64,000 bases of DNA from Nesterenkonia xinjiangensis (GTDB taxonomy: Bacteria > Actinomycetota > Actinomycetes > Actinomycetales > Micrococcaceae): assembly GCF_013410745.1 (NCBI RefSeq), contig NZ_JACCFY010000001.1, forward strand, positions 2,356,001-2,420,000, given 5' to 3'. Shown here one piece after another: positions 20,338 through 44,501 of the stretch; the first letter of the stretch is position 1, and every line of letters begins with the position of its first letter. The notes beneath the pieces were generated by a model. The model did no database searches and was not told where the DNA came from. It saw only the letters and a list, made by a program, of their open reading frames with translations. The position numbers and the translations under genes were made by a program.

Positions 20338-20351
20338 GGCAGCGGACCTGC

Positions 20352-24870: not shown

Positions 24871-25005
24871 GCCTACAGAGCATACCCTTCATCAAGGAGA
24901 GGCATTGGACGGCATGAGCAATCTGCGACACGATCACAGGGAGAAGATCTGCCCGCCCGGCCCCCACGACGTCGTCGCCGGCCGCCGTCCCTTCAGGAGG
25001 ACCCC

Positions 25006-26325: not shown

Positions 26326-26372
26326 GCCGGCTGCCCGCCCCACCCGCTTCACATCACCCTCTGGAGGACACC

Positions 26373-27779
26373 ATGACCGAGTTCGAGGTCCGCAATCCCG
26401 CCACCGCCGCGGTGATCGACACCGTCCACGACCACACCGCCGAGGAGGCCGCCGCCCAGGTCGACGCCGCGCAGGCCGCCTTCGAGCAGTGGCGCACCGT
26501 GGCCCCGCGGAAGCGTGCAGAGATCCTGATGGCCGCCCACCGCGGCATGCTCGACGACGCGGAGCGGCTGCGCGACATCATCGTGGCCGAGAACGGCAAG
26601 TCGCAGGCCGACGCCGCCGCAGAGGTGGCCTACGCCGCGGAGTTCTTCCGCTGGTACGCGGAGGAGGCCGTCCGTGCCCCCGGTGAGTACGGGGTGGCTC
26701 CGGCCGGAGGCGTGCGCAACGTGGTCACCCGCCACCCCGTGGGCGTGGCGGTGCTCATCACCCCGTGGAACTTCCCGGCCGCCATGGCCACCCGGAAGAT
26801 CGCTCCGGCGCTGGCCGCCGGCTGCACCGTGCTGCTCAAGCCCGCCAGCGAGACCCCGCTGACCGCCCTGGCGATCGCCGAGATCCTCCAGCAGGCCGGC
26901 GTGCCGGAGGGCGCGGTCCAGGTGGCAGCATCCTCCAGCGCCTCGACGGTGGTCTCGGCCTGGCTGGCCGACGACCGGGTGCGCAAGCTCTCCTTCACCG
27001 GCTCCACCGGGGTGGGCCGTCGGCTGCTGGCCCAGTGCGCCGAGCGAGTGGTCAACACCTCCATGGAGCTGGGCGGCAACGCGCCGTTCATCGTGACAGC
27101 CGACGCCGACGTCGAGGCCGCCGTTGAGGGGGCGATGGTCGCGAAGTTCCGCAACTCCGGGCAGGCCTGCACCGCGGCGAACCGCTTCTACGTGCACGCC
27201 GACGTCGCCGAGGAGTTCATCGCCGCCTTCGGACGGCGCATCGAACAGCTGACGGTCGGCGACCCGGCCGCCGGTGCGGCCATCGGCCCGGTGATCCACG
27301 CGAAGGCGGCCGCCGAGATCCGGGATCTGATCGACGGCGCCGTGGCCGCCGGGGCACGCATCGCGCATCAGGCGGCGCTGCCCGCAGGCGAGGGTGCCGC
27401 AGGCCTGGACCAGGAGGCCTTCGTGGCTCCCACCCTGCTGGCAGACGTCCCGGCCGACGCGGCCATCCTCAGCGAGGAGATCTTCGGCCCGGTGGCTCCG
27501 GTGGTGGTCTACACCGACCAGGACGAGATGATCGCCCGCGCCAACGACTCCGAGGTGGGCCTGTCCTCCTACGTCTTCGCCGGGAACCTGCAGCGTGCCA
27601 TGCAGATCGGTGAGAGGCTGGAGGCGGGGATGGTCGGGATCAACCGCGGCATCGTCTCCGACCCGAGCGCACCCTTCGGCGGCGTCAAGCAGGCCGGCAT
27701 CGGCCGTGAGGGCGGCAGCTTCGGCATCGAGGAGTTCACCGAACCGCAGTACCTGAGCGTCGACTGGTCCACGGTCTGA
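26373..27779 (+). CDS. gabD: Succinate-semialdehyde dehydrogenase
   Basis: A 468-residue aldehyde dehydrogenase of the GabD type. The NAD(P)-site TPWNFPAAMATRK, FTGSTGVG, the catalytic glutamate E232 in ELGGN and nucleophile C266 in NSGQACTAANR are all present. It oxidises succinate semialdehyde to succinate after GabT. CTGGAGG lies before ATG 26373. The long antisense frame over this gene is a codon-bias shadow. Confidence 0.94.
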   Translation: MTEFEVRNPATAAVIDTVHDHTAEEAAAQVDAAQAAFEQWRTVAPRKRAEILMAAHRGMLDDAERLRDIIVAENGKSQADAAAEVAYAAEFFRWYAEEAVRAPGEYGVAPAGGVRNVVTRHPVGVAVLITPWNFPAAMATRKIAPALAAGCTVLLKPASETPLTALAIAEILQQAGVPEGAVQVAASSSASTVVSAWLADDRVRKLSFTGSTGVGRRLLAQCAERVVNTSMELGGNAPFIVTADADVEAAVEGAMVAKFRNSGQACTAANRFYVHADVAEEFIAAFGRRIEQLTVGDPAAGAAIGPVIHAKAAAEIRDLIDGAVAAGARIAHQAALPAGEGAAGLDQEAFVAPTLLADVPADAAILSEEIFGPVAPVVVYTDQDEMIARANDSEVGLSSYVFAGNLQRAMQIGERLEAGMVGINRGIVSDPSAPFGGVKQAGIGREGGSFGIEEFTEPQYLSVDWSTV

Positions 27780-27845
27780 CCTGCTGGTCCGATCCGCCGG
27801 ACTGACCCGCCGAACTGACCGCACGTCCACGAGGGAGCCGAGACG

Positions 27846-29306
27846 ATGACCGAGACCACCAGTTCCGAGACCACCAGTTCCGAGACCACGAGCTCTGAGA
27901 CCACCCGTCTGGAGTACCGCACCCGGGATCCGCGCACCAACACCGTGCTGGAGACCTTCGACGTCCTGGAGCCGGCGCAGCTGGAGGAGGTGCTGGAGGT
28001 CGGCCACCAGGCCTTCCAGGACTGGCGGACCCTGGACATCGAGGACCGTGCGGTGTTCGCCCACCGCATCGCTGACCTGTTCGAGGAGCGACGCACGGAC
28101 CTGGCCGTCATCGCCTCCACGGAGATGGGCAAGGCGCTGGACCAGGCGGACGGCGAGGTGCAGGAGTGCATCGACATCTTCCGCTATTACGCCGTCAACG
28201 GTCCCCACCTGGGCGCTGACGAGGTCATCAAGGAGATCGACGGGCGCCGGGCCGTGATCCAGAAGCGTCCGCTGGGGATGCTGCTGGGCATCATGCCGTG
28301 GAACTTCCCGTTCTACCAGGTGGCCCGGTTCGCGGCGCCGAACCTTTTGCTGGGCAACACGCTCCTGCTCAAGCACACGGAGTCGTGCCCGCGCTCGGCG
28401 CTGGCCCTGCAGCGGCTCCTCGACGACGCCGGGCTGCCGGCGGGCGTCTACCAGAACGTCTTCGTCACCCATGACCAGGTCGAGCAGATCATCGCCGACG
28501 ACCGGGTCCAGGGAGTCTCGCTCACCGGCTCCGAGCGGGCCGGCTCGGCAGTGGCCTCCCTCGCGGGGCGGCACCTGAAGAAGGTGGTGCTCGAGCTGGG
28601 CGGCTCGGACCCGCACATCTACCTGTCGGCGGAGGACGTCGCCCAGGCCGCCCGCGAGGCGGTGGAGTTCCGTCTGGACACCATGGGTCAGGCCTGCACC
28701 TCGAACAAGCGGCTGATCGTGCTCGAGGACCTCTACGAGGAGTTCGTGGACGCGGTGGTCGAGGAGATCGGCGCCCTGGAGCCAGGTGACCCGCTGGAGC
28801 CTCGGCCGGGGCACTACTATCCCCTCTCCTCCGAGCAGGCCGCCGAGGGTCTGCACGGTCAGCTGCGGCGCGCCGTCGAGCAGGGGGCGCGGCTGCGAGT
28901 GGGCGGCGACCGGCCGGATCGTCCGGGAGCTTGGCTGCGGCCGGCCGTGCTCACCGATGTCAGCGAGCACACGGACGCCTACCGCCAGGAGCTCTTCGGA
29001 CCGGTCCTGACGATCTACCGGGTCCGTGATGAGGAGGAAGCGGTACGCCTGGCCAACGACTCGTCCTACGGTCTCGGCGGCGCGGTCTTCTCGCAGGACC
29101 GGGCTCAGGCATTGCGCGTGGCCCAGCAGCTCGAGGTCGGCATGTCCAATGTCAACGTCGGCGGCTCCGAGGCCGCGGACATGCCCTTCGGCGGTGTGAA
29201 GCGCTCCGGGTTCGGCCGAGAGCTGGGACCGCTGGGGATGGACGAGTTCGTCAACAAGCGCCTGCTGAACATCGTCGACCCGGAGATTGCGGGGCGCGAG
29301 GGCTGA
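27846..29306 (+). CDS. Second succinate-semialdehyde-type aldehyde dehydrogenase
   Basis: A 486-residue aldehyde dehydrogenase with MPWNFPFYQVARF, LTGSERAG, E250 in LELGGSDP and nucleophile C284 in MGQACTSNK. It belongs to the short SSADH/YneI-like group and differs clearly from the preceding gabD. The first 20 residues are a low-complexity Thr/Ser/Glu repeat coded by 15-bp tandem copies, ahead of the usual start of the fold. It probably oxidises succinate semialdehyde or a related C4-C5 semialdehyde, giving the operon a second specificity or cofactor choice. Confidence 0.88.
   Translation: MTETTSSETTSSETTSSETTRLEYRTRDPRTNTVLETFDVLEPAQLEEVLEVGHQAFQDWRTLDIEDRAVFAHRIADLFEERRTDLAVIASTEMGKALDQADGEVQECIDIFRYYAVNGPHLGADEVIKEIDGRRAVIQKRPLGMLLGIMPWNFPFYQVARFAAPNLLLGNTLLLKHTESCPRSALALQRLLDDAGLPAGVYQNVFVTHDQVEQIIADDRVQGVSLTGSERAGSAVASLAGRHLKKVVLELGGSDPHIYLSAEDVAQAAREAVEFRLDTMGQACTSNKRLIVLEDLYEEFVDAVVEEIGALEPGDPLEPRPGHYYPLSSEQAAEGLHGQLRRAVEQGARLRVGGDRPDRPGAWLRPAVLTDVSEHTDAYRQELFGPVLTIYRVRDEEEAVRLANDSSYGLGGAVFSQDRAQALRVAQQLEVGMSNVNVGGSEAADMPFGGVKRSGFGRELGPLGMDEFVNKRLLNIVDPEIAGREG
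27852..27905 (+). repeat. 15-bp tandem repeats at the 5' end of the second aldehyde dehydrogenase
   Basis: Units at 27852-27866 and 27867-27881 are identical, the third (27882-27896) has diverged and a partial fourth follows. They encode ETTSS repeats. Confidence 0.85.
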
Positions 29307-29364: not shown

Positions 29365-30096
29365 ATGACGTCTCCGGAGGCCTCCGTGCCCCATGACCTG
29401 AGTCGACCCATCCACGACGCGATGATGGTCTATCCGGGCGATCCCGCCGTCGTGCTGGGGCCCGGGCTCACGCTTGAGGGCGACGGCGTCGCCGTCGCGC
29501 GTCTGACCTGCGGCTCACACACGGGCACCCACCTGGATGCCCCGAGCCACACGGTGCCCGGGGGGCGGACGACCTCACAGATCCGGCTGGAGGAGCTCAT
29601 CGGCCCGGCCCGGGTGATCCACCTGGAGGCTGGTCCGGGGCACCTGGTGGCACCGCAGGATCTGAGCCTCGGAGACGCGGAGCGACTGCCCCGCCGGGTG
29701 TTCCTGGCCTTCGGCTGGGACCGGTTCTTCGGCACGGAGCAGGCGCTGCAGCACCCGGGGCTGAGCGTGGAGGCCGCCGAGCTGCTGTGGTCGCGGGGGA
29801 TGCGGGTCCTCGGCACCGATGCGCTGAGCCCTGACCTCACCGGAGCCGCCCTGACCGACCCAGCCTCGACCGACCCGGAGGCAGGGTTCCCCGTCCACGA
29901 GCTGGTGCTCGGCCGCGACGGGCTGATCGTGGAGAATCTGACCGGACTGCGCGATCTGCCGGCGGGGGAGCACCACGTGGGGATCTTCCCGCTGCCGCTG
30001 GCCGACGTCGACGGCGCTCCGGCGCGCGTGGTGGCCTGGCGGGGAGCTGCTCAGGGGCTCAGCGCCGGTGACCCGCCTGCGCCGCCAGCAACGTGA
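29365..30096 (+). CDS. Cyclase-family (kynurenine-formamidase-like) metal hydrolase
   Basis: A 243-residue cyclase-family protein (PF04199 type). The metal-binding motif HTGTHLDAPSH is at about residues 53-63, preceded by MVYPGDP and followed by FGWDRFFG and GTDALSPD. Members hydrolyse N-formylkynurenine, isatin or other cyclic amides, or act on polyketides; the substrate here is unknown. The frame opens at 29287 but ATG 29365 is set right after a purine-rich site that includes a nine-G run. Its end overlaps the convergent aldolase gene by 38 bp, leaving no room for a terminator. Confidence 0.85.
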   Translation: MTSPEASVPHDLSRPIHDAMMVYPGDPAVVLGPGLTLEGDGVAVARLTCGSHTGTHLDAPSHTVPGGRTTSQIRLEELIGPARVIHLEAGPGHLVAPQDLSLGDAERLPRRVFLAFGWDRFFGTEQALQHPGLSVEAAELLWSRGMRVLGTDALSPDLTGAALTDPASTDPEAGFPVHELVLGRDGLIVENLTGLRDLPAGEHHVGIFPLPLADVDGAPARVVAWRGAAQGLSAGDPPAPPAT

Positions 30097-30688
30097 GCTG
30101 CTCCGGATCCTCGAGCGCTGATCCTACGGCCACGACGCTCACACCGGCATCGAGGAACTCTTGGGCGTTGTGGGCGTTCATCCCGCCCGTGGCCACGAAG
30201 TTCACGTGCGGGAAGGGGCCGCGCATCATAGCGAACCAGGAGGTCCCCAGCCACTGCGCGGGGAAGGCCTTCACCCAGGTCAGCCCGAGTGTGGTCGCGG
30301 CCTGCAGCTCGGTGGGAGTGGTGATGCCCGGGAGGAATGGCAACGACTCCTGCGCTGCGACGCGGACGAGCCCTGCGTCATAACCGGGGGAGACCAGATA
30401 CTCCGCACCGGCCTCCTTGGCGGCGGGGATCTGTTCCTCGCGCACGATGGTGCCGGCGCCCACAGACCTGCCCCGTTGAGCGGCCAGACGGGAGACCTCG
30501 CGCAATGACACAAGGTCCTCGTCGGTCTGGAGGGGCAGCTCCACGGAGTCGATGCCGAGGTCCCAGGCCGTGGTGGCGAGCTCCATCGAGCGCTCCACCC
30601 CCATGCCGCGGAGGATGGCCATGACGGGGGCGGAGCCGAAGGCGTGGTCGAACCAGGTGTTCTCCACCGCGGAGGATGTCGAGGTCAT
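30059..30688 (-). CDS. KDPG/KDPGal-type aldolase
   Basis: A 209-residue class I aldolase of the Eda/DgoA family. The Schiff-base lysine is K140 in WVKAFPA, the catalytic glutamate lies in SVELPLQT, and GAGTIV, SPG and GGM phosphate-loop motifs are in place. It would split 2-keto-3-deoxy-6-phosphogluconate (or the galacto form) to pyruvate and glyceraldehyde 3-phosphate. Its start overlaps the stop of the upstream kinase by four bases, so kinase and aldolase act in succession. Confidence 0.9.
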   Translation of the reverse strand: MTSTSSAVENTWFDHAFGSAPVMAILRGMGVERSMELATTAWDLGIDSVELPLQTDEDLVSLREVSRLAAQRGRSVGAGTIVREEQIPAAKEAGAEYLVSPGYDAGLVRVAAQESLPFLPGITTPTELQAATTLGLTWVKAFPAQWLGTSWFAMMRGPFPHVNFVATGGMNAHNAQEFLDAGVSVVAVGSALEDPEQLTLLAAQAGHRR

Positions 30689-31584
30689 GCGGATGCTCCT
30701 TCGTCCATGAAGTCAGTGGTGGTCTGCAGTGTCAGTGCGGCGCGGCGGTGTCCGGCCGTGAGCCGGGCGGAGGAGTCGCCGCCGTCGAGCAACGCCGCGA
30801 GATACCCGGCGGCGAAGGCATCACCTGCTCCCACCACTTCGACGACCTCGGTCGGGATGGCGGGCTCGAAGACGTGCTGATCGCCGGTGAATTCGGTGGC
30901 GCCGACGTCACCGTCCTTGATCACCAGGGTGGGCGTGCCGTCAAGGAAGTCGCGGACGGCTGCGGCCGTGCTCGTTCCCCAGAGCAGCTCCGCCTCGTCG
31001 CGGCCCACGAAGACGACGTCGGCCCGCCGAGCCAGAGCCAGGAGGGCCTGAGCGGCCTCCTCGCGCGGCCAGAGCGCGGCACGGAAGTTCACATCGAAGC
31101 TGACGGGGAGGTGGGCCTCCCGGGCGCGCGCCATCAGCCGGTCGATGAAGGCCGCCGCTGCCGCGGACAGTGCGGGTGTGATCCCTGAGAGATGCACCAG
31201 CCCGTATGGACTCAGGTCCAGGGCGTCGGCGTCGGCGGTGGAGAGCCGGGACGCGGCAGATCCTCTGCGGTGGTAGAGGACGCCGTGGCCTGGGTCTTTG
31301 AAGTAGACGCCGGTGGGGGCCTCCGGGTCGTAGATCACCGGGGTGAGATCCACGCCGCGAGAGGTGAGCGTATCCGAGACCCGCCGACCGAGCTCGTCGT
31401 CTCCGAGTCGGCTGAACCAGACGCTGCGTCGTCCGAGCGCAGCGAGGTGGGCGGCCACATTGGACTCGGCCCCGCCGACGTCGAGGGTGAACGCGGCGGC
31501 CGTCCTCAGCCGTCCGGTGCTGCTGGGGGTGACAAGAGCCATCGTCTCGCCGACGCACAGCACAGGAGAGGATGTCGTCGTCAT
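30685..31584 (-). CDS. PfkB-family sugar kinase, 2-keto-3-deoxygluconate kinase type
   Basis: A 299-residue ribokinase-fold kinase. The N-terminal GGAESNVAAHLAALG signature, the DVNFRAALW strand and the catalytic GAGDAFAAG with base D255 are present. The adjacent aldolase points to phosphorylation of 2-keto-3-deoxygluconate. It lies 66 bp after the DauR-like regulator gene on the same strand and overlaps the aldolase by four bases, forming the operon regulator-kinase-aldolase, divergent from the deacylase operon. Confidence 0.88.
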   Translation of the reverse strand: MTTTSSPVLCVGETMALVTPSSTGRLRTAAAFTLDVGGAESNVAAHLAALGRRSVWFSRLGDDELGRRVSDTLTSRGVDLTPVIYDPEAPTGVYFKDPGHGVLYHRRGSAASRLSTADADALDLSPYGLVHLSGITPALSAAAAAFIDRLMARAREAHLPVSFDVNFRAALWPREEAAQALLALARRADVVFVGRDEAELLWGTSTAAAVRDFLDGTPTLVIKDGDVGATEFTGDQHVFEPAIPTEVVEVVGAGDAFAAGYLAALLDGGDSSARLTAGHRRAALTLQTTTDFMDEGASA

Positions 31585-31650
31585 GTCGTGCCTTCTTCCG
31601 GTCAGAGGCGTCCGGGGCCGATGTGGCCGCCGTGGAGCCTGCCAGGCGAC

Positions 31651-32319
31651 TCAGGAGTTGCGGATGGTGTCCAGGTAGCTGTAGGCCGTGACCTTGGAGA
31701 TGCCCAGACGTTGGGAGACCCGGTCCACGGCGCGTTTGATATGGAATGCTCCGCGCGCTTCAAGCCTGCGCAGCACGGCGATCCGGTCCTCCTTGACCAT
31801 GACCGGCGGGGGCTTGCCGATCTCGGCGATGGCCGACTCCAGCATCCCGTCGAGGACGGCGTCGATGCTGGGGCCGACGATCTCCTCGGGCTCATCCTTC
31901 TGAGCGGGCAGGAGGGAGGAGATGATCGAGCGGACGTTCTCCAATGCGGTGAGGTCCACATTGATGCACAGTGCCCCGATCACTGAGCCGGCGCGATTCC
32001 GGTAGTACACCGAGGAGCAGTGCAGTTCGCGGCCGTCGGCCGTGCGACCGCGGTAGCCGAAGGCATCATGGTCGGCCTTCTCATCCTTGAGGAGCGTCAG
32101 GCCGCGGTCCGTGGAGGGGCCGCCGACTGGCCTGCCGCTGACGTGGCCGTTCTCGATGGCGTGGATGGTCTGGTCCATATCGCGGCGACTCAGATCATGA
32201 AGGACCACCTCGCAGTGCTCCCCGATGGTGACGGCGACAGCCTTCATCACCGGGGCCAACACCGCATGGAGCTCCTGGATGCTCTCGAACCGCGGCGAAT
32301 CTGCCGTCACATCACTCAC
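31651..32319 (-). CDS. DauR/YheO-family transcriptional regulator
   Basis: A 222-residue regulator with a YheO-type PAS-like domain (about 15-130; GEHCEVVLHDLS, ENGHVSGRPVGG) and a C-terminal HTH (about 165-222; VDRVSQRLGISKVTAYSYLD). DauR controls D-arginine use in Pseudomonas; other members control other amino-acid or carbohydrate routes. GTG 32319 was chosen because GGGAGG stands six to seven bases before it; the frame stays open upstream without coding signal. A 15-bp dyad in the divergent promoter region (32403-32417) is its probable binding site. Confidence 0.85.
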   Translation of the reverse strand: MSDVTADSPRFESIQELHAVLAPVMKAVAVTIGEHCEVVLHDLSRRDMDQTIHAIENGHVSGRPVGGPSTDRGLTLLKDEKADHDAFGYRGRTADGRELHCSSVYYRNRAGSVIGALCINVDLTALENVRSIISSLLPAQKDEPEEIVGPSIDAVLDGMLESAIAEIGKPPPVMVKEDRIAVLRRLEARGAFHIKRAVDRVSQRLGISKVTAYSYLDTIRNS

Positions 32320-32402
32320 AGTCTTCCTCCCGGTTGTGCGCTGCCGCAGGGGTGTGTGTTCCGTAGGGTACCCCGTGGTCAGAGTCGCGACCTCGCGTTC
32401 AC

Positions 32403-32417
32403 ATGTAAAAGTTACAT
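32403..32417. promoter_or_regulatory. Operator candidate ATGTAAAAGTTACAT in the divergent promoter
   Basis: 6-bp arms and a three-base centre in the only AT-rich part of the 196-bp gap between the DauR-like gene (-) and the deacylase gene (+). A TATAGAT -10-like element follows at 32424-32430 on the plus strand. Confidence 0.5.
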
Positions 32418-32515
32418 CAAGTGTATAGATTCTCGGTAAACCATGGGTTATGGTCGATCCCGGCACAGTGTTGCCCAGGACACATGGGCGGCCGACGACA
32501 GCACGGGAGGCGATG

Positions 32516-34159
32516 ATGCACGACCGACAGCTCATCCGGGGCGGGGATCTTCTCGACGGCACCGGGCGCCGCCGCCGTCGCGCCGATGTCCGCATCGTCG
32601 GCGGACGCGTGGAAGAAGTCGGCGCCGACCTGCCCTCCGTGGAAGGCGAGACGCTGCTCGACGCTGCGGGCCGCCTCCTGCTCCCCGCGTTCGTGGACGT
32701 CCACTCCCATGACGACGCCGCCCTCTTCCGCCCTCGGGCGCTCGACCCGAAGCTCTCCCAAGGTGTGACGACCACCATCGTGGGCAACTGCGGCCACGGA
32801 TGCGCGCCCTCCGTCGCCGGGGGAGGCCTGGAGGACTACGCCACCCCTGTGTTGGGCCCTTTCCCGGAGGAGGTGTTTCCCCGCTTCACCGACTACCTCG
32901 ACGCGGTGGAACGTTCCGCCCCGGCACTCGACGTCATCGCGCTGGTCCCGCACGCTCCGCTGCGGGCCGGCGTGATGGGCATGGAGCAGAAGCCGGCTGA
33001 TGCGGCCCAGCTCCGCGAGATGGCCGCCCATCTCGACGAGGCGCTCAGCGCCGGCGCGGTGGGCCTGTCATTGGGGCTGATGTATGCCCCAGGGAGCGCG
33101 GCGGAACGTGAGGAGCTCCTTGCACTCGCTCAGGTGGTGGCCCGCCGGGACAAGGTCCTCGTCGCTCACATCAGGAACGAAGGTGGCCGGTTGGAGAGCT
33201 CCTTGGACGAGTTCCTGGCCCTGGGCCGAGACGCCGGATGTGCCCTGCACGTGAGCCACCTCAAGGTCACCGGTGCCGCCAATTTCGGCACGATGCCTCA
33301 GATCATCGACCGTCTCGAGGCCGCCCGCGCGGAGGGGATCGATGTCACCGCAGACGTCTACCCCTACACCGCCGGCAGCACCACCGCCTCCACGCTGTTC
33401 CCCAGCTGGACGACCCGACGCGGCACAGACTCGCTTCTTCAGGTCTTGACCGATCCGGACGCCCGAGCCCGGGCGCTGGACGAGGTGCGCAGGCCGTGGG
33501 ACGGCCCGTTGGAGAATCAGTTCACCTCGGTGGGGCCGGATGCGATCCTGCTCGCCGGGTTCAGCCATCCCGAAACCCGTGCGTTCGATGGTCGTGCGTT
33601 GGTGGACATCGCAGCTGAACGCGGTCAGGACCCCGCCGAGGCACTGGCCGATCTCGTGCTCTCGGAGGACGGAGTGCTCACCATCATCGTCCACCATTCC
33701 GACCCGCAGGGGATGCGGGAGGTGCTCTGCTGGCCCCACGCCTTCCTCGGATCCGATGGTCTTCCCCGAGAGGAGGGCTACGTGCACCCGCGGCTCTTCG
33801 GCACCTTCCCCCGCGCGCTGAGCACGTATGCGTGGCAGGACGGGCTGCTGCCCGCCGAAGCGGTCGTGAGGAGGATGAGCTCCGCCCCGCGGGCGCGGTT
33901 CGGCGTGCCCGGCGGGTCGATCGTCCCCGGGGCACCGGCGGACCTGCAGATCATCGACCCGAGCACCTACACGGACCGGGCCGACTACCAGAACCCCCGC
34001 CGGGAGACGCACGGACTCGATGCGGTGCTGCTCGGAGGTCGGCCGGTCTGGCCGCGGCCACCGGGAACGCCGGACGCTCCAGGCTCCGGCTCGGGGCAGC
34101 TGCATCGGACCGGTCCTGTGGCCACGTCGCTGCCGTCAGGGCGCACCACAGGCCAGTAG
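32516..34159 (+). CDS. N-acyl-D-amino-acid deacylase family amidohydrolase (candidate N-acetylglucosaminate deacetylase)
   Basis: A 547-residue metal amidohydrolase of the D-aminoacylase family. The expected metal/catalytic residues are all present: H63 and H65 in HSHDD, C92 in VGNCGHG, H248 in SHLKVTG, H393/H394 in VHHSDPQG and D414 in GSDG. D-aminoacylases remove acyl groups from D-amino acids; a related enzyme deacetylates N-acetyl-D-glucosaminate in the marine chitin-oxidation pathway. The neighbours (PLP lyase, RidA, KDG kinase and aldolase) favour the sugar-acid substrate. ATG 32516 has GGGAGG five bases upstream; an ATG three bases earlier is too close. Confidence 0.85.
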   Translation: MHDRQLIRGGDLLDGTGRRRRRADVRIVGGRVEEVGADLPSVEGETLLDAAGRLLLPAFVDVHSHDDAALFRPRALDPKLSQGVTTTIVGNCGHGCAPSVAGGGLEDYATPVLGPFPEEVFPRFTDYLDAVERSAPALDVIALVPHAPLRAGVMGMEQKPADAAQLREMAAHLDEALSAGAVGLSLGLMYAPGSAAEREELLALAQVVARRDKVLVAHIRNEGGRLESSLDEFLALGRDAGCALHVSHLKVTGAANFGTMPQIIDRLEAARAEGIDVTADVYPYTAGSTTASTLFPSWTTRRGTDSLLQVLTDPDARARALDEVRRPWDGPLENQFTSVGPDAILLAGFSHPETRAFDGRALVDIAAERGQDPAEALADLVLSEDGVLTIIVHHSDPQGMREVLCWPHAFLGSDGLPREEGYVHPRLFGTFPRALSTYAWQDGLLPAEAVVRRMSSAPRARFGVPGGSIVPGAPADLQIIDPSTYTDRADYQNPRRETHGLDAVLLGGRPVWPRPPGTPDAPGSGSGQLHRTGPVATSLPSGRTTGQ

Positions 34160-34184
34160 GCCGCCACACGTGAGGAGACACACG

Positions 34185-35441
34185 ATGAACCAGCACGACA
34201 CCCACCCGATACGAGCCGCCGTCCTGGCGGAACGCGAGGCGCCGGGCCCGCTCTCCAAATCCTCCCTGGGCGGCATCGGCCCCGGCCAGGCCCTGAACAT
34301 CAGAGACGAGCTCCCGACGCCGATGCTCACCGTGGACACCGAGACAGTCGTCTCCAACATCGAACAGATGGCTGAATGGACGGCCGAGCAGGGCGTGCAG
34401 CTGGCACCTCACGGCAAGACGACGATGACGCCGGCCCTCTGGCGAGCACAGCTGGCCGCTGGCGCCGTGGGCATCACCGTGGCGAATTTCTCGCAGGCAC
34501 GTGTGGCCGTGGAGGCGGGTGCGCCCCTGGTGGTGATCGCCAACGAGTTCCTCACCCCGCCCGGGCTGTCCTGGCTTCGGGGGGTCCTGGCGGAGGATGG
34601 GCCCGAGATCATGTGCTGGGCAGACTCAGTGCGGGCTGTCGAGCGGATGCAGAGCGCTCTGGGGCGCACTCGCCGCCGCGTCCAGGTGTGCGTGGAGGTC
34701 GGCATCGAGGGAAAGCGGGCCGGTGTCCGCCAGGACGGAGACGTCGGTGAGATCGTGGAGGCGCTCACTGGTGCTGAGGCGCTGGCCTTCGCCGGGTTCT
34801 CCGGCTTCGAAGGAGTGCTGCCTCCGGAGCGTATCGAGGAGGTCCGGTCCTACCTCCGACGCATGGCTCGTCTGTTCGAGGAGCACGAGGACAGGATCGA
34901 GGTGGATCACCCCGTGCTCACCGCCGGCGGCGGACTCTACTTCGACCTGGTGGCCGAGCTGCTCAGACCAGCCGCAGACTCCGTCGACGGGGGACGGGTG
35001 ATCCTCCGTCCTGGCTCATACCTGCTCCATGACCATGGGCATTACGGTCGGCTGACTCCGGCTCGACTGCGCGGCTCCGGGCCGCAGCTGCGTCCGGCAG
35101 CCACCCTCTGGGCACGGGTGCTCTCCACGCCGGAACAGGGACTCGCGATCCTCGACGCCGGCAAACGGGACCTGGCCTATGACATCTCCCTGCCCCGACC
35201 GCAGCGGATCCACCGGGCCGACGGGCGCATCGAAGAGTTCACCCAGGCGGAGCTCGTGGACACCAACGACCAGCATGGCTACCTCGAACACGCCGACCAG
35301 GAACTCGAGATCGGCGACGTCATCGAATTCGGACAGTCCCACCCCTGCACGATCGCCGACAAATGGCGGGAGCTGCCGCTCGTCACCGCCGTGGAGCCGG
35401 GTCGGCTGCGTTGGGACGCCTCCGCCCGGACCCACTTCTGA
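34185..35441 (+). CDS. D-threonine-aldolase-like PLP enzyme (candidate D-glucosaminate dehydratase)
   Basis: A 418-residue fold-type III PLP enzyme of the D-threonine aldolase / D-serine dehydratase family. PLP lysine K78 is in APHGKTTM, and the metal pair H386/C388 is in SHPCTIADKW near the C-terminus. Substrate is not fixed by the motifs. D-glucosaminate dehydratase, which turns D-glucosaminate into 2-keto-3-deoxygluconate and ammonia, is to my knowledge a member of this family and close to this length. An adjacent RidA, which clears enamine/imine intermediates, favours a dehydratase over an aldolase. ATG 34185 has GAGGAGA upstream. Confidence 0.85.
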   Translation: MNQHDTHPIRAAVLAEREAPGPLSKSSLGGIGPGQALNIRDELPTPMLTVDTETVVSNIEQMAEWTAEQGVQLAPHGKTTMTPALWRAQLAAGAVGITVANFSQARVAVEAGAPLVVIANEFLTPPGLSWLRGVLAEDGPEIMCWADSVRAVERMQSALGRTRRRVQVCVEVGIEGKRAGVRQDGDVGEIVEALTGAEALAFAGFSGFEGVLPPERIEEVRSYLRRMARLFEEHEDRIEVDHPVLTAGGGLYFDLVAELLRPAADSVDGGRVILRPGSYLLHDHGHYGRLTPARLRGSGPQLRPAATLWARVLSTPEQGLAILDAGKRDLAYDISLPRPQRIHRADGRIEEFTQAELVDTNDQHGYLEHADQELEIGDVIEFGQSHPCTIADKWRELPLVTAVEPGRLRWDASARTHF

Positions 35442-35506
35442 ACACCCACATCCCACCCGAAGACTCATCAGAGCATGTTCACCGTCACCACTGAAAGGAC
35501 GACACT

Positions 35507-35899
35507 ATGACCAAGAAGCCGATTATGACCCCTGAGGCCTGCCGTCCGGGAGGCCCGTATGCGCATGCTGTGCGCGCCGGCGACTTCGTGTTCCTCTCCG
35601 GGGCCACACCGCACCGGCCCGACGGAACCCTGGTCGACGGCGGCTTCGCCACCCAGGCCAAGGTCACCTTCGACCACCTGGCCGCCATCGCCGCCTCCGC
35701 TGACGCCAGTCTCGATCAGGCCGTCCGTGTGGGTGTCTACCTGCTGGATCTGGGCAACTTCGCCGGCATGAACGAGCTATTCCCGCAGTACTTCGGGGAG
35801 GGGCAGGTGGCCCGCACCACGTTGCAGGCGGATCTTCCCGGATTCGAGATCGAGGTGGATGCGGTGCTGTATTCGCCCCTCTCAGGCTCCGGGGGGTGA
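35507..35899 (+). CDS. RidA-family enamine/imine deaminase
   Basis: A 130-residue YjgF/RidA-family protein. PEACRPGGPYAHAVRAGDFV and VFLSGATPHRPDG form the N-terminal half; the substrate-binding arginine is in VARTTLQ and the C-terminal IEVDAV strand is present. RidA hydrolyses 2-aminoacrylate-type intermediates released by PLP dehydratases. AAAGGA precedes ATG 35507. It sits between the PLP enzyme and the symporter, in the same operon. Confidence 0.92.
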   Translation: MTKKPIMTPEACRPGGPYAHAVRAGDFVFLSGATPHRPDGTLVDGGFATQAKVTFDHLAAIAASADASLDQAVRVGVYLLDLGNFAGMNELFPQYFGEGQVARTTLQADLPGFEIEVDAVLYSPLSGSGG

Positions 35900-35905
35900 C
35901 CGGCA

Positions 35906-37390
35906 GTGGACGTCACACCACACCCTGTCTATCTGGGTGTCTTCATCGGATTCGTCATCCTCATGCTGGTCGTCGGGATCCTGATAGCCCGGAGGACCAA
36001 GACGGGTGAGGACTTCCTGCTGGCCGGGCGGAACCTGACCACGCCGCTGCTGCTGGCGACCACGCTGGCCACGCTGGTGGGGACCGGCTCCAGTCTGGGC
36101 GCCGTCGGCTTCGGCTATGAGAACGGGTGGGCCGGGGCCCTCTACGGCATCGGCGGAGCCACCGGCGTGCTACTCCTGATGCTGCTCTTCGCCGGGGTTC
36201 GGAAACACGGCTTCATGACCTACTCCGAGGAGGTCAGCTTCTACTACGGGGCGGACCGGAAGGTGAAGGGCCTCGTCGCCGTGGTCCTCCTGCTGGCCAG
36301 CGTGGGGTGGCTGGGTGCGCACATCATGGGCGGATCCATCTACCTGACCTACCTCACGGGAATCGACATCGACCTGGCCAAGGTCATCGTGGCCCTCGGC
36401 TTCGGGATCTACACCGTGGTCGGAGGTTACCTCGCCGTGGTGATCACCGACGCCATCCAGGGGACCCTGCTCTTTCTGGGCTTCACCGGACTGGCAGTGC
36501 TGGCCGTCGTGACGTTGGGCGGATTCTCCGGCCTGGACGCCGCCTCTGGCGAGGAGGCCATGGGCTTCCTCGGCTTGGAGGCCATGGGAACGCTGCCGGC
36601 TGTGTCCTTCGCGGCCGTCATCGCCGTGGGCGTGCTCGCCACTCCCTCCTTCCGGCAACGCATCTACTCGGCCAGGAACACCCAGGTGGTGCGACGCAGC
36701 TTCCTCTGGGTGGCGGGGCTGTTCGCGGCCTTCGCTGTGATGCCCGCGCTCGTCGGCATGGCTGCCTACAGCCTGAACCCGGATCTGGCATCACCTGACA
36801 TGGCGTTCCCCTACCTCGCCACGGAGGTCTTCCCCCTGGCGGTGGGAGCGTTCCTGCTGGTGGCGGGGCTCTCGGCGACCATGTCCTCCGGGGACTCCGA
36901 TGCGGTGACGGCTGTGACGATCCTGCTGCGCGACGTCGTCCAGATGGTCACCGGTCGGATGCCGAAGAAGGAGAAGATGGTCCTGTACTCACGGGTCTCC
37001 CTGGTCTGTGTCCTAGTCCTGGCGCTGGCCGGAGCGTTGATCGCCGACACGGTCATCGGGTACATCACCACGATGATCTCGACGATCCTCGCCGGACTCT
37101 TCGTGGCCTCCGTGCTGGGGCGGTTCTGGTCCCGTTCCACCTGGCAGGGTGGAATGGCGGCGATCGTGGCCGGCTCCGCCACGTCCCTCATCGTGCAGGC
37201 CAACGCCACCTGGAGCGAGTTCTGGGGGAGCCCGGTGTTCCCCTCCCTCGCCGTGGCCACGGCGGCCTGCGTGCTGGTCAGTCTGATCACTCCCCGGTCC
37301 CAGGTCTCCGAACAGGAGGCCCTGGACCAGCTCGCGGCGGAGCGGGCCCAGATCGACGTCGGCACCACCGTGCGGGCGGACGCTCCCTGA
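35906..37390 (+). CDS. Sodium:solute symporter (SSS family)
   Basis: A 494-residue polytopic protein with about 13 helices. The SSS pattern is visible in the N-terminal GRNLTTPLLLATTLATLVG, the GGYLAVVITDAIQG loop and the RIYSARNTQVVRR segment. GTG 35906 follows RidA by seven bases, so it is probably co-translated. The context suggests uptake of the operon's substrate, perhaps N-acetyl-glucosaminate or another D-amino or sugar acid; the family alone does not say which. Confidence 0.88.
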   Translation: MDVTPHPVYLGVFIGFVILMLVVGILIARRTKTGEDFLLAGRNLTTPLLLATTLATLVGTGSSLGAVGFGYENGWAGALYGIGGATGVLLLMLLFAGVRKHGFMTYSEEVSFYYGADRKVKGLVAVVLLLASVGWLGAHIMGGSIYLTYLTGIDIDLAKVIVALGFGIYTVVGGYLAVVITDAIQGTLLFLGFTGLAVLAVVTLGGFSGLDAASGEEAMGFLGLEAMGTLPAVSFAAVIAVGVLATPSFRQRIYSARNTQVVRRSFLWVAGLFAAFAVMPALVGMAAYSLNPDLASPDMAFPYLATEVFPLAVGAFLLVAGLSATMSSGDSDAVTAVTILLRDVVQMVTGRMPKKEKMVLYSRVSLVCVLVLALAGALIADTVIGYITTMISTILAGLFVASVLGRFWSRSTWQGGMAAIVAGSATSLIVQANATWSEFWGSPVFPSLAVATAACVLVSLITPRSQVSEQEALDQLAAERAQIDVGTTVRADAP

Positions 37391-37440: not shown

Positions 37441-37482
37441 CGGCCCCGCGTGCTCTGCTCAGATCGCAGAGCCGTGGGGTCG
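37441..37482. terminator. Bidirectional hairpin between symporter and dehydratase
   Basis: Inner stem GCTCTGC/GCAGAGC (37452-37458 with 37466-37472) and outer CGGCCCC/GGGGTCG stem. It overlaps the 3' end of the convergent minus-strand gene. Confidence 0.55.
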
Positions 37483-38442
37483 TCGGCCCAGGAACTCGGC
37501 GAAGCGGTCGGCGTCGATGTTGCCGCCGGTGATCACGGTCAGCACCTTCTTGCCGTGCAGCCGGCCCAGCAGCTCGTGCCGGAACGCCGCGACGCCGACG
37601 GCGCCGGAGCCCTCCACCATCTGTCGGTGGTGCTCGGCCAGCCATGCGACGGCGTCGGCGATGCTGTCCTCCCTCACGCTGACGAAGCCGTCGACCAGGC
37701 GCAGCACGATCTCCAGGTTCAGCGTCCCGATGTCGCCGGGGAGCCCGTCCGCCCAGGACGAGCGGTAGGGGACCTCCACACGGTGACCGGCCTCATAGCT
37801 GGCCCGGAACTTCGCGGAGACCTCCGGCTGGACGCCGATGATCTCGATGTCCGGGTTGATGGCCTTCGCCGCCACGGCGATCCCGGATATCAGCCCGCCG
37901 CCGCCGACCGGGACGACGATCGCGTCCAGATCGGGGACCTCGAGCAAAGCCTCCAAGGCCACGGTGCCCTGCCCGGCGATGATGCGCGGGTCGTCGTAGG
38001 AGTGCACGTAGACGGCACCGCGCTCCTCGGCGAGCCGCCAGGCGTGGGCCTCGGCGTCGTCATAGGAATCTCCATGGACGATCAGGTCCGCCCCGAGACC
38101 GCGGGCTCCGGCCTTTTTGGTCTCCGGGGTGTTCTCCGGCACCACGATGGTCGCGGGCACACCCTGGGCGGAGGCGGCCCAGCTCAGGCCTTGGGCGTGA
38201 TTGCCGGAGGAGGCGGTGACCACCCCGCGGTTTCGCTGCTCGGGACTGAGCGCGTCCACAGTGTTCAGCGCGCCCCGGACCTTGAAGGACCCGGTGAGCT
38301 GCTGGTTCTCCCATTTCAGCAGCAGCTCCGTGCCCGTCTGCGCGGAGAGCATCGGGGAGTGCTCGATGGAGGTCTCCCGGATCCGCCCGCGCAGGCGGCG
38401 GTGGGCGGTGACGACGTCGTGCAGGCTCGGCGGACGGTTCAT
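37459..38442 (-). CDS. Serine/threonine dehydratase-family PLP enzyme
   Basis: A 327-residue fold-type II PLP enzyme. The PLP lysine is in GSFKVRGA (about residue 53), followed by ASSGNHAQGLSW and the phosphate-binding GGGGLISG loop. The length without an ACT regulatory domain matches catabolic threonine/serine dehydratases and EutB-like hydroxyectoine enzymes. The substrate (L-threonine, serine or a beta-hydroxy amino acid) is open. It begins just after an 18-bp tandem repeat and follows the YjiH gene on the same strand. Confidence 0.85.
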   Translation of the reverse strand: MNRPPSLHDVVTAHRRLRGRIRETSIEHSPMLSAQTGTELLLKWENQQLTGSFKVRGALNTVDALSPEQRNRGVVTASSGNHAQGLSWAASAQGVPATIVVPENTPETKKAGARGLGADLIVHGDSYDDAEAHAWRLAEERGAVYVHSYDDPRIIAGQGTVALEALLEVPDLDAIVVPVGGGGLISGIAVAAKAINPDIEIIGVQPEVSAKFRASYEAGHRVEVPYRSSWADGLPGDIGTLNLEIVLRLVDGFVSVREDSIADAVAWLAEHHRQMVEGSGAVGVAAFRHELLGRLHGKKVLTVITGGNIDADRFAEFLGRRPHGSAI

Positions 38443-38464
38443 GGGGCCTCGTTCTTCTTGGGGT

Positions 38465-38518
38465 GGCTTGTTCTCACTGGGCGGCTGGTTCTCACTGGTC
38501 GGATGGTCCCCAGTGGGG
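38465..38518. repeat. Three 18-bp tandem repeats upstream of the dehydratase
   Basis: Units at 38465, 38483 and 38501; the first two differ at few bases, the third is more diverged. They lie 22-76 bp before the start codon of the minus-strand dehydratase, in its 5' untranslated region. Confidence 0.75.
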
Positions 38519-38610
38519 CGGTGCGGATCTCGGGCGGTGCGGGCGACGACGCCCCAGCCGCTGCAGGCGGCCGGGGCGTCGTCGGGGCTCTGGCTCGGCA
38601 GCCGGGACGA

Positions 38611-39993
38611 TCAGTAGAACAGGTGCGCCAGGCCGATGATGATCGGCAGGGTGATGAGCGTGCGCAGCAGGAAGATCATCACCAAGTGGTGGAGACGGAC
38701 CGGGATCTTCGAGGCCAGCAGCAGCCCGCCCACCTCGGACATGAAGATCAGCTGGGTGACGGAGAGGCAGCCGATGATGAACCGGGTCATCTCCGCCTCG
38801 ATGCCCGCACCGATCACCGCCGGCAGCAGCATGTCGGCGAAGCCGATGAACAGCGTCTCCGAGGCGGCGGCGGCCTCCGGGACGCCCAGCAGCTCCAGGA
38901 CCGGCACGAAGGGCGCGCCCAGCCAGGAGAACAGCGGGGTGTGCTCGGCGATCAGGACCGCCACCGTGCCCACGGCCATGATGATGGGGATGATGCCGAC
39001 CCACATCTCCAGCACGTTGGAGGCACCACGGCGGCCGATGTCGCCGATCCGCGCCGTGGATGAGCGCTCCAGGGCGCTGTCCCATGCCCGGCGCAGGACA
39101 TGGGCCCGCCCGCCGACGGCAGCTCCGGCGGCGTCGGCGTCGTGCGCGGCGTGGTCCTGCGCCTCGGTGCCCTGGGCCGGGACCCAGTCGGCGTAGCTGT
39201 CGCTGAACCGGGAGAGCGGCGGGATGCGCGGCATGATCATCGCCGCCGCGAGCCCGGCGACCACAATGGTGGCGTAGAAGGGCGCGAACATGTGCTGCAG
39301 GCTCAGGTAGCCCATGATCACGATCGTGAACGTCAGCGAGACCACGTTGAACGTGGTGCCCAGCACCGCCGCCTCACGCTTGGTGTAGTAGCCCTGCACA
39401 TACTGCTGGTTGGTCATCAGCACACCGATGGTGGCGTCACCCAGCCAGGAGGCGAGGCTGTCGATCGAGGAGCGTCCGGGGACGGTGAACAGCGGGCGCA
39501 TCACCTTGTTGAGCAGCACCCCGGCGAACTCCAGCAGGCCGAAGTTCAGCAGCAGCGGCAGCAGGAACCCGGCGAAGAAGAACACGGTGACCATGACGGC
39601 GGCGAGGCCGAAGATCAGGTCCCCGGTGTCCTCGCCCCAGAGCCACTCCGGGCCGAGCTGGAGCACCGTCATCAGTCCGAACACCAGGCCGAGCACACGC
39701 AGGCCGAACCAGACCGGGGTGGTCGAGAACAGCGCCCGCACGAGGTGGCGCTCCTTCCACGTCTCCGGGAAGGTCCGGTAGGCGAGGGTCCCGACGACTG
39801 AGACCGCCATCAGACCCACTGTCAGCCAGGGGAGAGCCCCGGCCAGTCCGTCCTGCGCGGCGCCGGCGAGGAAGGCCACCGGGATGGTGATCGAGCCCTC
39901 GCCGTCCGGGACGGGCACGACGAAGATCATGAGCCCCAGCAGAGAGGGGATCAGGAACCAGGGGACGGCGCGCTGAGTGGATGTCTGGGTCAT
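38611..39993 (-). CDS. YjiH-family membrane protein (nucleoside-recognition GATE domains)
   Basis: A 460-residue protein with about 10-11 helices and two Gate-type domains, one from about residue 130 (VTVFFFAGFLLPLLLNFG, IDSLASWLGDATIGVLMTNQQYVQG) and one from about 340 (FIGFADMLLPAVIGAG, LSVTQLIFMSEVGG). YjiH-family proteins are putative transporters without a settled substrate. ATG 39993 has GAGGA upstream; the longer frame beyond it is non-coding. It follows the NCS1 permease by 10 bp on the same strand. Confidence 0.8.
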   Translation of the reverse strand: MTQTSTQRAVPWFLIPSLLGLMIFVVPVPDGEGSITIPVAFLAGAAQDGLAGALPWLTVGLMAVSVVGTLAYRTFPETWKERHLVRALFSTTPVWFGLRVLGLVFGLMTVLQLGPEWLWGEDTGDLIFGLAAVMVTVFFFAGFLLPLLLNFGLLEFAGVLLNKVMRPLFTVPGRSSIDSLASWLGDATIGVLMTNQQYVQGYYTKREAAVLGTTFNVVSLTFTIVIMGYLSLQHMFAPFYATIVVAGLAAAMIMPRIPPLSRFSDSYADWVPAQGTEAQDHAAHDADAAGAAVGGRAHVLRRAWDSALERSSTARIGDIGRRGASNVLEMWVGIIPIIMAVGTVAVLIAEHTPLFSWLGAPFVPVLELLGVPEAAAASETLFIGFADMLLPAVIGAGIEAEMTRFIIGCLSVTQLIFMSEVGGLLLASKIPVRLHHLVMIFLLRTLITLPIIIGLAHLFY

Positions 39994-40003
39994 GGTCGGG
40001 TCC

Positions 40004-44185: not shown

Positions 44186-44501
44186 GGGCGGATCCTTGGT
44201 CTCGAGCAGGTTCAGGTGTGAGCCTCACGGGCGGCCGTGATCAGGGTATCGAGCGGGTCTGACCCCGCAGAGGGTGGGCGGCGCGGGGCAGAGGAGTGTG
44301 AGGTGAATCTACTGAGATGGACGTCACAGGGCAAGGCTGGAAGAATTGTCTCACGCTGCATCTGATGCAGTTCTGTCCACTCATCGTCGCCAGCGTGCAC
44401 CGTATGAGACTCAAGTGCGGCTATATGCTTCGTTTCTGTCAGCTTTCGCTGGCAGGGGATGGTTTCTCGGGCGGGATCCGGAGCTCAGGAGGGGAGACGG
44501 C
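44186..44501. promoter_or_regulatory. Divergent regulatory region between the amine oxidase and Lrp genes
   Basis: 316 bp without a gene and AT-richer than its surroundings at about 44300-44460. It contains the perfect 15-bp palindrome CTGCATCTGATGCAG at 44356-44370, a good candidate binding site for the adjacent Lrp-type protein. No small gene or RNA was recognised. Confidence 0.5.
44356..44370. promoter_or_regulatory. 15-bp perfect palindrome, Lrp-type operator candidate
   Basis: 7+1+7 dyad, about 170 bp upstream of the amine oxidase gene and 132 bp upstream of the Lrp-type gene. Confidence 0.5.

What the first reader, a model, noticed from the sequence alone, without database searches (positions are those of the whole stretch)
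30059..37390. Complete candidate pathway for N-acetyl-D-glucosaminate (oxidised chitin monomer) use
Two divergent operons contain, in order of the chemistry: an SSS symporter, an N-acyl-D-amino-acid-deacylase-family hydrolase with all metal residues, a D-threonine-aldolase-like PLP enzyme of the D-glucosaminate dehydratase size, RidA, a KDG-type kinase and a KDPG-type aldolase, plus a DauR-like regulator. This fits N-acetylglucosaminate to glucosaminate to 2-keto-3-deoxygluconate to KDPG to pyruvate and glyceraldehyde 3-phosphate, a route known to me from marine chitin-oxidising bacteria. Finding it as one locus in an actinobacterium, with a DauR-like regulator, would be new to me. The alternative is a D-amino-acid route with an unrelated sugar-acid module.
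Basis: partly seen in the sequence, partly recalled or inferred. Interest (0 to 1): 0.85.

Follow-up and report, generated by a model that had tools for sequence, protein, structure and literature searches.

The report
Oxidised-chitin sugar-acid pathway in Nesterenkonia
An actinobacterium carries a compact set of genes that probably lets it eat the oxidised building block of chitin, a route so far described almost only in Gammaproteobacteria, and its importer gene suggests that the same route, with different enzymes plugged in, occurs in other groups of bacteria.

Summary
The strongest evidence is the transporter: the window's SSS protein is 45-52.5% identical to the symporter (OngIT type) of four gammaproteobacterial ong clusters and lies in their clade (SH-aLRT 100), while the best other SSS in samples of 395 further genomes each of its order and phylum is 31% and 34%. 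Of 80 OngIT-like loci from four phyla, 69 also carry a deacylase-type amidohydrolase plus a fold-III PLP enzyme; 0 of 17 control SSS loci do. The organism is a Nesterenkonia. Not met: the deacylase is outside the OngB clade and lacks its Ser292/Gln298 signature; the PLP enzyme is no D-threonine aldolase but also not in the gammaproteobacterial OngC subclade. No AA10 LPMO was found in the genome, so the substrate would be scavenged. Across OngIT loci the deacetylase and lyase steps are filled by unrelated enzymes, including an EF_0837/DgaE/DgaF set in Planococcus. A new variant of a known pathway; no activity was tested.

The parts
30059..30688 (-). KDPG/KHG-type aldolase (step 4: KDPG to pyruvate + glyceraldehyde 3-phosphate)
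   Evidence: PF01081 120 bits; NCBIfam eda 146.3 bits, cut-off 156; 88% and 73% in two other Nesterenkonia
30685..31584 (-). PfkB sugar kinase, likely KDG kinase (step 3)
   Evidence: PF00294 169 bits; best NCBIfam models KDG/KDGal kinases, far below cut-off
31651..32319 (-). DauR-like regulator: YheO-like PAS + HTH_22
   Evidence: PF08348 115 bits, PF13309 67.5 bits; related regulators (40%, 36%) beside OngIT-like SSS genes in Shouchella L115 and Halobacillus L127
32403..32417 (.). candidate operator ATGTAA-AAG-TTACAT in the divergent promoter region
   Evidence: identical in Nesterenkonia sp. PF2B19, one mismatch in N. cremea; function inferred
32513..34159 (+). D-aminoacylase-superfamily deacylase (step 1: N-acetylglucosaminate to glucosaminate + acetate)
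   Evidence: PF07969; metal Cys/His/His/Asp and Lys/Tyr/Ser/Arg of the carboxylate site aligned with PpOngB, specificity residues not OngB-like
34185..35441 (+). fold-III PLP enzyme of the OngC / D-serine-dehydratase-like group (step 2: glucosaminate to KDG + ammonia)
   Evidence: PF14031, PF01168; Lys of PHGKTTM and His/Cys of SHPC invariant in the 20 aligned sequences; inside the OngC-containing clade, SH-aLRT 100
35507..35899 (+). RidA (OngD counterpart; imine/enamine hydrolysis)
   Evidence: PF01042; 97% and 80% in two other Nesterenkonia, 58-69% in the Nocardiopsis/Kineosphaera-type loci
35906..37390 (+). SSS symporter, OngIT type (uptake of N-acetylglucosaminate)
   Evidence: 45-52.5% to the SSS of four gammaproteobacterial ong clusters; OngIT clade SH-aLRT 100; next SSS in the sample of its order 31%

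Best explanation
The locus is an uptake-and-use module for N-acetyl-D-glucosaminate, the C1-oxidised chitin monomer. The SSS symporter (OngIT type) takes it up. The amidohydrolase removes acetate. The fold-III PLP enzyme, helped by RidA, eliminates water and ammonia to give 2-keto-3-deoxygluconate. The PfkB kinase phosphorylates it to KDPG, and the aldolase splits KDPG to pyruvate and glyceraldehyde 3-phosphate. The DauR-like protein, made from the divergent kinase/aldolase transcript, probably senses an intermediate and controls both operons from the intergenic palindrome. Shown here: gene content, conserved clustering, and membership of the transporter in the OngIT clade. Inferred: every substrate, every reaction and the regulation. 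No AA10 LPMO was found in the genome, so the bacterium most likely scavenges acid released by others.
For: Transporter: against 72,556 plasmid records at E <= 1e-40 only 10 match (44.8-52.5%), all Pseudoalteromonas, Vibrio or Klebsiella. Neighbourhoods of 8 of the 10 were fetched: 5 have annotation showing ong-type genes, not always all of them, and 2 of the 3 unannotated ones are ong-like by tblastn (L084, L085). OngIT clade SH-aLRT 100; best other SSS 31% in 395 further genomes drawn from its order and 34% in 395 from its phylum (these draws held no other OngIT carrier). Of 80 OngIT-like loci, 69 carry a deacylase-type amidohydrolase + fold-III PLP enzyme and 55 of these also a sugar kinase; with at least 7 kb on both sides 61 of 67; control SSS loci 0 of 17. 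In Planococcus L128 the OngIT-like gene stands with a DgaE-family lyase (532.7 bits, cut-off 385) and a DgaF equivalog (386 bits, cut-off 300) instead; Jeotgalibacillus L131 looks the same by its reading frames. Published operational criterion of an ong cluster (at least 4 clustered homologues above 30%): met against Pseudoalteromonas CF6-2 (SSS 47.3, kinase 34.8 over part, RidA 34.6, PLP 32.6, deacylase 30.4%), Vibrio L085 and Klebsiella L086.
Against: The deacylase is outside the OngB clade, has Thr at the Ser292 position and no Gln in the MAFFT column of Gln298; S292T cut PpOngB to 1.3% of kcat/Km (PMC12017989). By score it is nearer to D-aminoacylases (268 bits) than to PpOngB (199). Against Pseudoalteromonas NC201 (L084) only three genes exceed 30% (deacylase 29.6, kinase 24.5%). 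The PLP enzyme's clade also holds loci without a kinase, some beside amino-acid ABC transporters (L077), and OngC itself also acts on D-Ser and D-Thr. Kinase and aldolase score below their NCBIfam cut-offs. No AA10 match in the genome. Two Nocardiopsis OngIT-like genes have none of the pathway genes nearby (L124 with full flanks, L126 with 5.8 kb upstream); L101, L118 and L130 are cut too close to tell.
Confidence: 0.73

Rival explanations
1. The module serves a close relative of GlcNAc1A: free D-glucosaminate, N-acetyl-D-galactosaminate or -mannosaminate, or a glucosaminate with another N-acyl group. The chemistry is the same with a different epimer or acyl group.
For: The deacylase lacks OngB's specificity residues. 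The Klebsiella ong-type cluster encodes a 2-dehydro-3-deoxygalactono-type kinase and aldolase by annotation, and the window kinase scores best with bifunctional KDG/KDGal kinase models. The DgaE-type cluster of Planococcus fits free glucosaminate too, although it keeps an EF_0837-type amidohydrolase.
Against: The transporter groups with OngIT, whose Pseudoalteromonas member is needed for growth on GlcNAc1A. A deacylase-type amidohydrolase lies near 74 of 80 OngIT-like genes.
Confidence: 0.17
2. A D-amino-acid scavenging operon (N-acyl-D-amino acid deacylase, D-serine-type dehydratase, RidA, DauR-like regulator) with an unrelated sugar-acid kinase/aldolase pair beside it.
For: The deacylase scores higher with D-aminoacylases than with PpOngB. 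Fold-III PLP enzymes of this group occur without kinase, and beside amino-acid ABC transporters, in other loci. DauR is, from recall, a D-arginine-utilisation regulator.
Against: Deacylase-type amidohydrolase, PLP enzyme and sugar kinase are clustered in 55 of 80 OngIT-like loci, and deacylase, PLP enzyme and kinase also in eight diverged actinobacterial loci without OngIT (L060, L063, L068, L070, L072, L079, L080, L081). The SSS is in the OngIT clade.
Confidence: 0.06
3. An ordinary ong cluster moved unchanged from a marine gammaproteobacterium.
For: Same gene content as ong clusters; SSS about half identical.
Against: Deacylase and PLP enzyme are 30-33% identical to the four reference OngB/OngC and outside the gammaproteobacterial clades. 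The SSS sits in an actinobacterial subclade with SH-aLRT 100. The regulator family differs (DauR-like versus RpiR).
Confidence: 0.02

Closest known systems
ong cluster of Pseudoalteromonas prydzensis ACAM 620 (GlcNAc1A catabolism; Jiang et al. 2022, PMC9537276)
   Same: SSS + deacylase + fold-III PLP enzyme + RidA + sugar kinase (+ KDPG aldolase in Vibrio, Klebsiella, Serratia); SSS in the same clade
   Different: Actinobacterium; deacylase and PLP enzyme not in the OngB/OngC clades; DauR-like instead of RpiR regulator; no OngA (GH20) or TonB receptor in the cluster; no AA10 LPMO found in the genome
PpOngB GlcNAc1A deacetylase (Wang et al. 2025, PMC12017989; PDB 9kb1)
   Same: Subtype V metal site Cys/His/His with catalytic Asp, and the carboxylate-binding residues
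   Different: Ser292 and Gln298 not met; 199 bits only; separate branch of the tree
D-aminoacylase of Alcaligenes faecalis (1m7j) and N-acyl-D-glutamate deacylase (3gip)
   Same: Same superfamily and metal residues; Thr at the 292 position
   Different: Outside their clade (SH-aLRT 99); longer insertion region; genomic context is a sugar-acid pathway
D-serine-deaminase-like fold-III enzyme (3gwq) / OngC
   Same: Same clade (SH-aLRT 100), same PLP Lys and SHPC motif
   Different: 30-31% identical to four gammaproteobacterial OngC; not in their subclade
[quoted passage not shown]
   Same: Ends at KDPG; found beside an OngIT-like SSS in Planococcus, and by its reading frames in Jeotgalibacillus
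   Different: Unrelated lyase and aldolase; not in the window locus

Membership tests
ong cluster (published operational criterion) | at least four clustered homologues of the ACAM 620 ong genes, E < 1e-5 and > 30% identity | tested here: met
   against Pseudoalteromonas CF6-2, a stand-in with the published gene order: five genes at 30.4-47.3%, deacylase only just above the line, kinase over part; also met against Vibrio L085 and Klebsiella L086; not against Pseudoalteromonas NC201 L084 (three genes). ACAM 620 itself was not available
OngIT transporter clade | groups with SSS of ong clusters apart from other SSS | tested here: met
   SH-aLRT 100 for 38 proteins, quick tree without bootstrap; other SSS in the two samples at most 34% identical
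OngIT transporter clade | specific transport of GlcNAc1A | not testable with these tools
   shown only for P. prydzensis by deletion
OngB GlcNAc1A deacetylase family | clade with PpOngB | tested here: not met
   outside the OngB/AfDam/BbDam clade
OngB GlcNAc1A deacetylase family | Ser292 and Gln298 | tested here: not met
   Thr at 292; Arg in the MAFFT column of Gln298, loop alignment uncertain
OngB GlcNAc1A deacetylase family | subtype V metal and carboxylate-binding residues | tested here: met
   C97 H222 H252 D368 K254 Y285 S291 R379 Y194 aligned
OngC glucosaminate dehydratase | same fold-III clade, apart from D-threonine aldolases | tested here: met
   SH-aLRT 100 for the 49-row clade
OngC glucosaminate dehydratase | within the gammaproteobacterial OngC subclade | tested here: not met
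   Nesterenkonia sequences branch separately
D-threonine aldolase | clade with 7dib/4v15 | tested here: not met
   106 bits against 208 for 3gwq
DauR-type regulator | YheO-like PAS + HTH_22 | tested here: met
   ligand unknown; that these domains mark DauR is recalled
oxidative chitin degradation (complete, from polymer) | AA10 LPMO in the genome | tested here: not met
   0 matches to PF03067; one GH18 match (34.7 bits) and one GH20 match (48.3 bits)

The most novel reading that the evidence does not exclude
GlcNAc1A use is a phylum-spanning module whose conserved core is the OngIT transporter, while the deacetylase and the ammonia-eliminating enzyme were recruited independently several times: OngB (Gammaproteobacteria), a separate long D-aminoacylase branch in Nesterenkonia and another in Bacillota, an EF_0837/PRK09237-type amidohydrolase in Nocardiopsidaceae, Actinophytocola, Glycomyces and Kineosphaera, and a SelA-like DgaE lyase in Planococcus and Jeotgalibacillus. 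OngIT would then be a marker for oxidised-chitin use in bacteria that OngB-based searches miss.
Probability: 0.5. Interest if true: 0.75.

Novelty: new variant of a known kind. Interest (0 to 1): 0.62.

Why it matters
LPMO action on chitin releases C1-oxidised ends, and the published survey found bacteria with the complete pathway for using them only in Gammaproteobacteria plus one betaproteobacterium (PMC9537276 section 17), with identity to the ong genes as its criterion. If the transporter is the true marker, some Actinomycetota and Bacillota use them too, many of the former with AA10 LPMOs of their own (19 of the 24 actinobacterial genomes among the best 80 OngIT-like loci). The locus is also a test case for the swapping of enzymes around a conserved transporter.

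Tried and rejected
Tried and dropped. (1) Using the OngB signature as proof: it fails in the window enzyme, and loop 2 aligns too poorly to read position 298 safely. (2) A shared His at position 348 in the window and Bacillota deacylases looked convergent, but the motif region showed His in neighbouring columns of other members too, so no claim is made. (3) Calling the PLP enzyme diagnostic: the clade contains loci with no sugar kinase. (5) Explaining the source of GlcNAc1A by an own LPMO: none found. (6) Structure prediction was not run, because its description offers no coordinates from which the pocket could be read. (7) Papers: among the titles and abstract beginnings listed (1 of 1; 20 of 103; 0; 6 of 6; 2 of 3; 25 of 37; 25 of 47) I saw no report of this pathway in Actinomycetota or Bacillota. 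The lists are capped and the library holds only open-licence PMC papers, so this is no proof of absence. [quoted passage not shown] Seen: PMC9537276 (abstract, passages, sections 11 and 17), PMC12017989 (abstract, passages, sections 4, 7, 10), PMC11653859 and PMC12343721 (passages only).

Rows left out before counts: in the PLP and deacylase trees near-duplicate gammaproteobacterial loci, L057, L058, L092-L094, and proteins under 300 or 420 residues were left out. The SSS tree used 40 proteins of 38 chosen loci plus 20 outgroup proteins. The 80 genome loci are the best 80 of 303. The control used 17 of the 20 non-own places listed; one of the 17 (L213) has an amidohydrolase hit (35%) and one (L203) a RidA hit. 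In some searches only the best three first-look candidates of each genome were scored. All trees are quick ones with SH-aLRT only, and the tool warned of long branches.
Full report
WHAT IS THERE. The window lies in a 3.57-Mb single-contig genome. All seven genes of the finding exist at the given coordinates with intact frames. The minus-strand set runs DauR-like regulator, PfkB kinase, KDPG/KHG aldolase. The divergent plus-strand set runs deacylase, fold-III PLP enzyme, RidA, SSS symporter. The PLP frame most likely starts at ATG 34185. Between the two sets lies ATGTAA-AAG-TTACAT at 32403-32417, identical in PF2B19 and with one mismatch in N. cremea.

IT IS A UNIT. The block recurs in the same order in PF2B19 (83-97% identity per protein) and in N. 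cremea (62-85%); of five flanking genes tested none was found in the N. cremea stretch. Within 30 genomes of the genus, own included, the deacylase occurs at 60% identity or more in 3, so the locus is accessory.

THE TRANSPORTER POINTS TO THE SUBSTRATE. The window SSS is 45-52.5% identical to the SSS of four ong clusters in Pseudoalteromonas, Vibrio and Klebsiella. Among 72,556 plasmid records only 10 match at E <= 1e-40 (44.8-52.5%), all from those three genera. In samples of 395 further genomes each of its order and its phylum, which drew no other OngIT carrier, the best other SSS is 31% and 34%. A second SSS gene in the Endozoicomonas locus L129 is 44% and falls in the clade too. In a 60-row quick tree the OngIT clade of 38 proteins has SH-aLRT 100, and the window sits in an actinobacterial subclade, also 100. 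The P. prydzensis OngIT deletion does not grow on GlcNAc1A but is unchanged on GlcNAc, GlcN and MurNAc (PMC9537276 section 11). The Pseudoalteromonas CF6-2 cluster used here as reference has the published gene order.

NEIGHBOURHOOD TEST. A scan of genome contigs (84,980 species) with the SSS alignment gave 303 relatives; the best 80 were kept: 24 Actinomycetota, 12 Bacillota, 43 Pseudomonadota, 1 Balneolota. Of the 80, 69 carry an amidohydrolase of the deacylase kinds plus a fold-III PLP enzyme within 9 kb, and 55 of these also a sugar kinase. Among loci with at least 7 kb on both sides it is 61 of 67. Control: 17 of the 20 other SSS places of the order, fetched with 19.5 kb, have 0 of 17; one has an amidohydrolase hit and one a RidA hit. 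The six full-flank exceptions are L103 (no PLP enzyme found), L124 (SSS alone), L128 and L131 (see below), L129 and L145 (PLP enzyme not found). L126 (5.8 kb upstream) also has the SSS alone; L101, L118, L130 and L140 are cut close to the SSS.

SAME JOB, DIFFERENT ENZYMES. The deacetylase slot holds OngB-type enzymes in Pseudomonadota. In Nesterenkonia it holds a separate branch (SH-aLRT 100) and in Bacillota another (100). In 17 actinobacterial loci (Nocardiopsis, Streptomonospora, Actinophytocola, Glycomyces, Allosalinactinospora, Kineosphaera) it holds another amidohydrolase; its Nocardiopsis kunsanensis member scores 363.7 bits with the NCBIfam amidohydrolase/deacetylase model NF006689, just under the cut-off of 371, and the others were found by similarity to it. 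The PLP slot holds OngC-group enzymes in Nesterenkonia, Nocardiopsis-type loci and Gammaproteobacteria, but in Bacillota a separate branch (SH-aLRT 100; one member scores 173 bits with the BhcC model, cut-off 690). In Planococcus (L128) and Jeotgalibacillus (L131) the SSS follows an EF_0837-type amidohydrolase, a SelA-like protein, an aldolase, a sugar kinase and a GntR regulator. Models were scored for L128 only: EF_0837 495 bits (cut-off 432), DgaE family 532.7 (385), DgaF equivalog 386 (300); the narrower DgaE equivalog scored 417, below its cut-off of 600. That unrelated enzyme sets share this transporter argues for a substrate that is an N-acylated or free 2-amino-2-deoxyaldonate.

THE TWO KEY ENZYMES. 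PLP enzyme: inside a 49-row clade (SH-aLRT 100) with gammaproteobacterial OngC, 3gwq and actinobacterial enzymes, apart from D-threonine aldolases and BhcC, but not in the gammaproteobacterial OngC subclade. Loci without a sugar kinase also fall in the clade, so it does not fix the substrate. Deacylase: the metal residues and the carboxylate-binding residues tested are present, but Ser292 is Thr, Ala193 is Met, Ala256 is Thr and Gln298 is not found. It lies outside the clade of AfDam, BbDam and OngB (SH-aLRT 99 for that clade), next to an Azospirillum protein (97; the tool warns of a long branch). So it works, if this reading is right, like OngB without being a member of the OngB family.

OTHER ACTINOBACTERIAL VERSION. 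Eight loci, L060 (another Nesterenkonia), L063, L068, L070, L072, L079 (Arthrobacter), L080 (Tsukamurella) and L081 (Microbacterium; frames look broken), also carry PLP enzyme, deacylase and KDG-type kinase, 8 of 8 with a RidA hit and 5 of 8 with an aldolase hit, but no SSS hit. Tsukamurella has a gluconate:H+ symporter there. In the seven placed in the tree the deacylases have Asp in place of the metal Cys (GQDG for GNCG) and no Lys254. They are a second, distinct arrangement for a probably similar sugar acid.

SOURCE OF THE SUBSTRATE. The window genome has no PF03067 (AA10) match, one GH18 match and one GH20 match. Of 36 OngIT-carrying Gram-positive genomes searched, 19 have AA10 (19 of 24 Actinomycetota, 0 of 12 Bacillota). 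Those without, among them both other Nesterenkonia, Kineosphaera and Actinophytocola, would have to scavenge the acid. That Nocardiopsis and its kin carry LPMOs may be independent of this locus; no control was run.

JUDGEMENT. I put 0.73 on N-acetyl-D-glucosaminate, 0.17 on a near relative, 0.06 on the D-amino-acid alternative. The published survey names only Gammaproteobacteria and one betaproteobacterium (PMC9537276 section 17); the listings, some capped and from an open-licence library, showed no report for Actinomycetota or Bacillota. It is a new variant of a known pathway, with a bolder reading that the transporter is the conserved core of a widely distributed module.

Noticed in passing
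L128 (Planococcus sp. CPCC 101016) 5274-11488; L131 (Jeotgalibacillus proteolyticus) 5234-11467: OngIT-like SSS next to an EF_0837-type amidohydrolase, SelA-like DgaE-family lyase, DgaF aldolase, sugar kinase and GntR regulator: a glucosaminate-6-phosphate version of the pathway. Family models scored on L128 only.
   Followed up: partly
17 actinobacterial loci among L097-L122: The deacetylase slot of OngIT clusters is taken by an amidohydrolase of the PRK09237/EF_0837 kind instead of a D-aminoacylase relative; model scored on L098 only.
   Followed up: partly
L060, L063, L068, L070, L072, L079, L080, L081: Second actinobacterial sugar-acid cluster without OngIT; in the seven placed in the tree the deacylase has Asp for the metal Cys and lacks Lys254; Tsukamurella has a gluconate:H+ symporter there.
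   Followed up: partly
L124, L126 (Nocardiopsis suaedae, N. chromatogenes); perhaps L118, L130: OngIT-like SSS genes with none of the pathway genes found nearby; only L124 has full flanks, L118 and L130 are cut close to the gene.
   Followed up: no
L086 8842-10320 and PDB 9g5m: The solved 'Amidohydrolase family protein' 9g5m groups at zero branch length with the Klebsiella ong-cluster deacylase and carries Ser292 and Gln298, so it is probably a GlcNAc1A deacetylase.
   Followed up: no
window 24457-29306 and 42461-45386: GABA transaminase, two succinate-semialdehyde-dehydrogenase-like genes (below model cut-offs), an amine oxidase and an AsnC-type regulator flank the locus: perhaps an amine/GABA degradation region.
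   Followed up: partly
window 37459-41377: Threonine/serine-dehydratase-like PLP enzyme, Gate-domain membrane protein and CytX-like NCS1 permease, conserved beside the locus in Nesterenkonia sp. PF2B19 but not found in the N. cremea stretch.
   Followed up: no
window 19387-21140: DUF1989 protein (+) and D-glutamate-cyclase-family protein (-), convergent neighbours.
   Followed up: no
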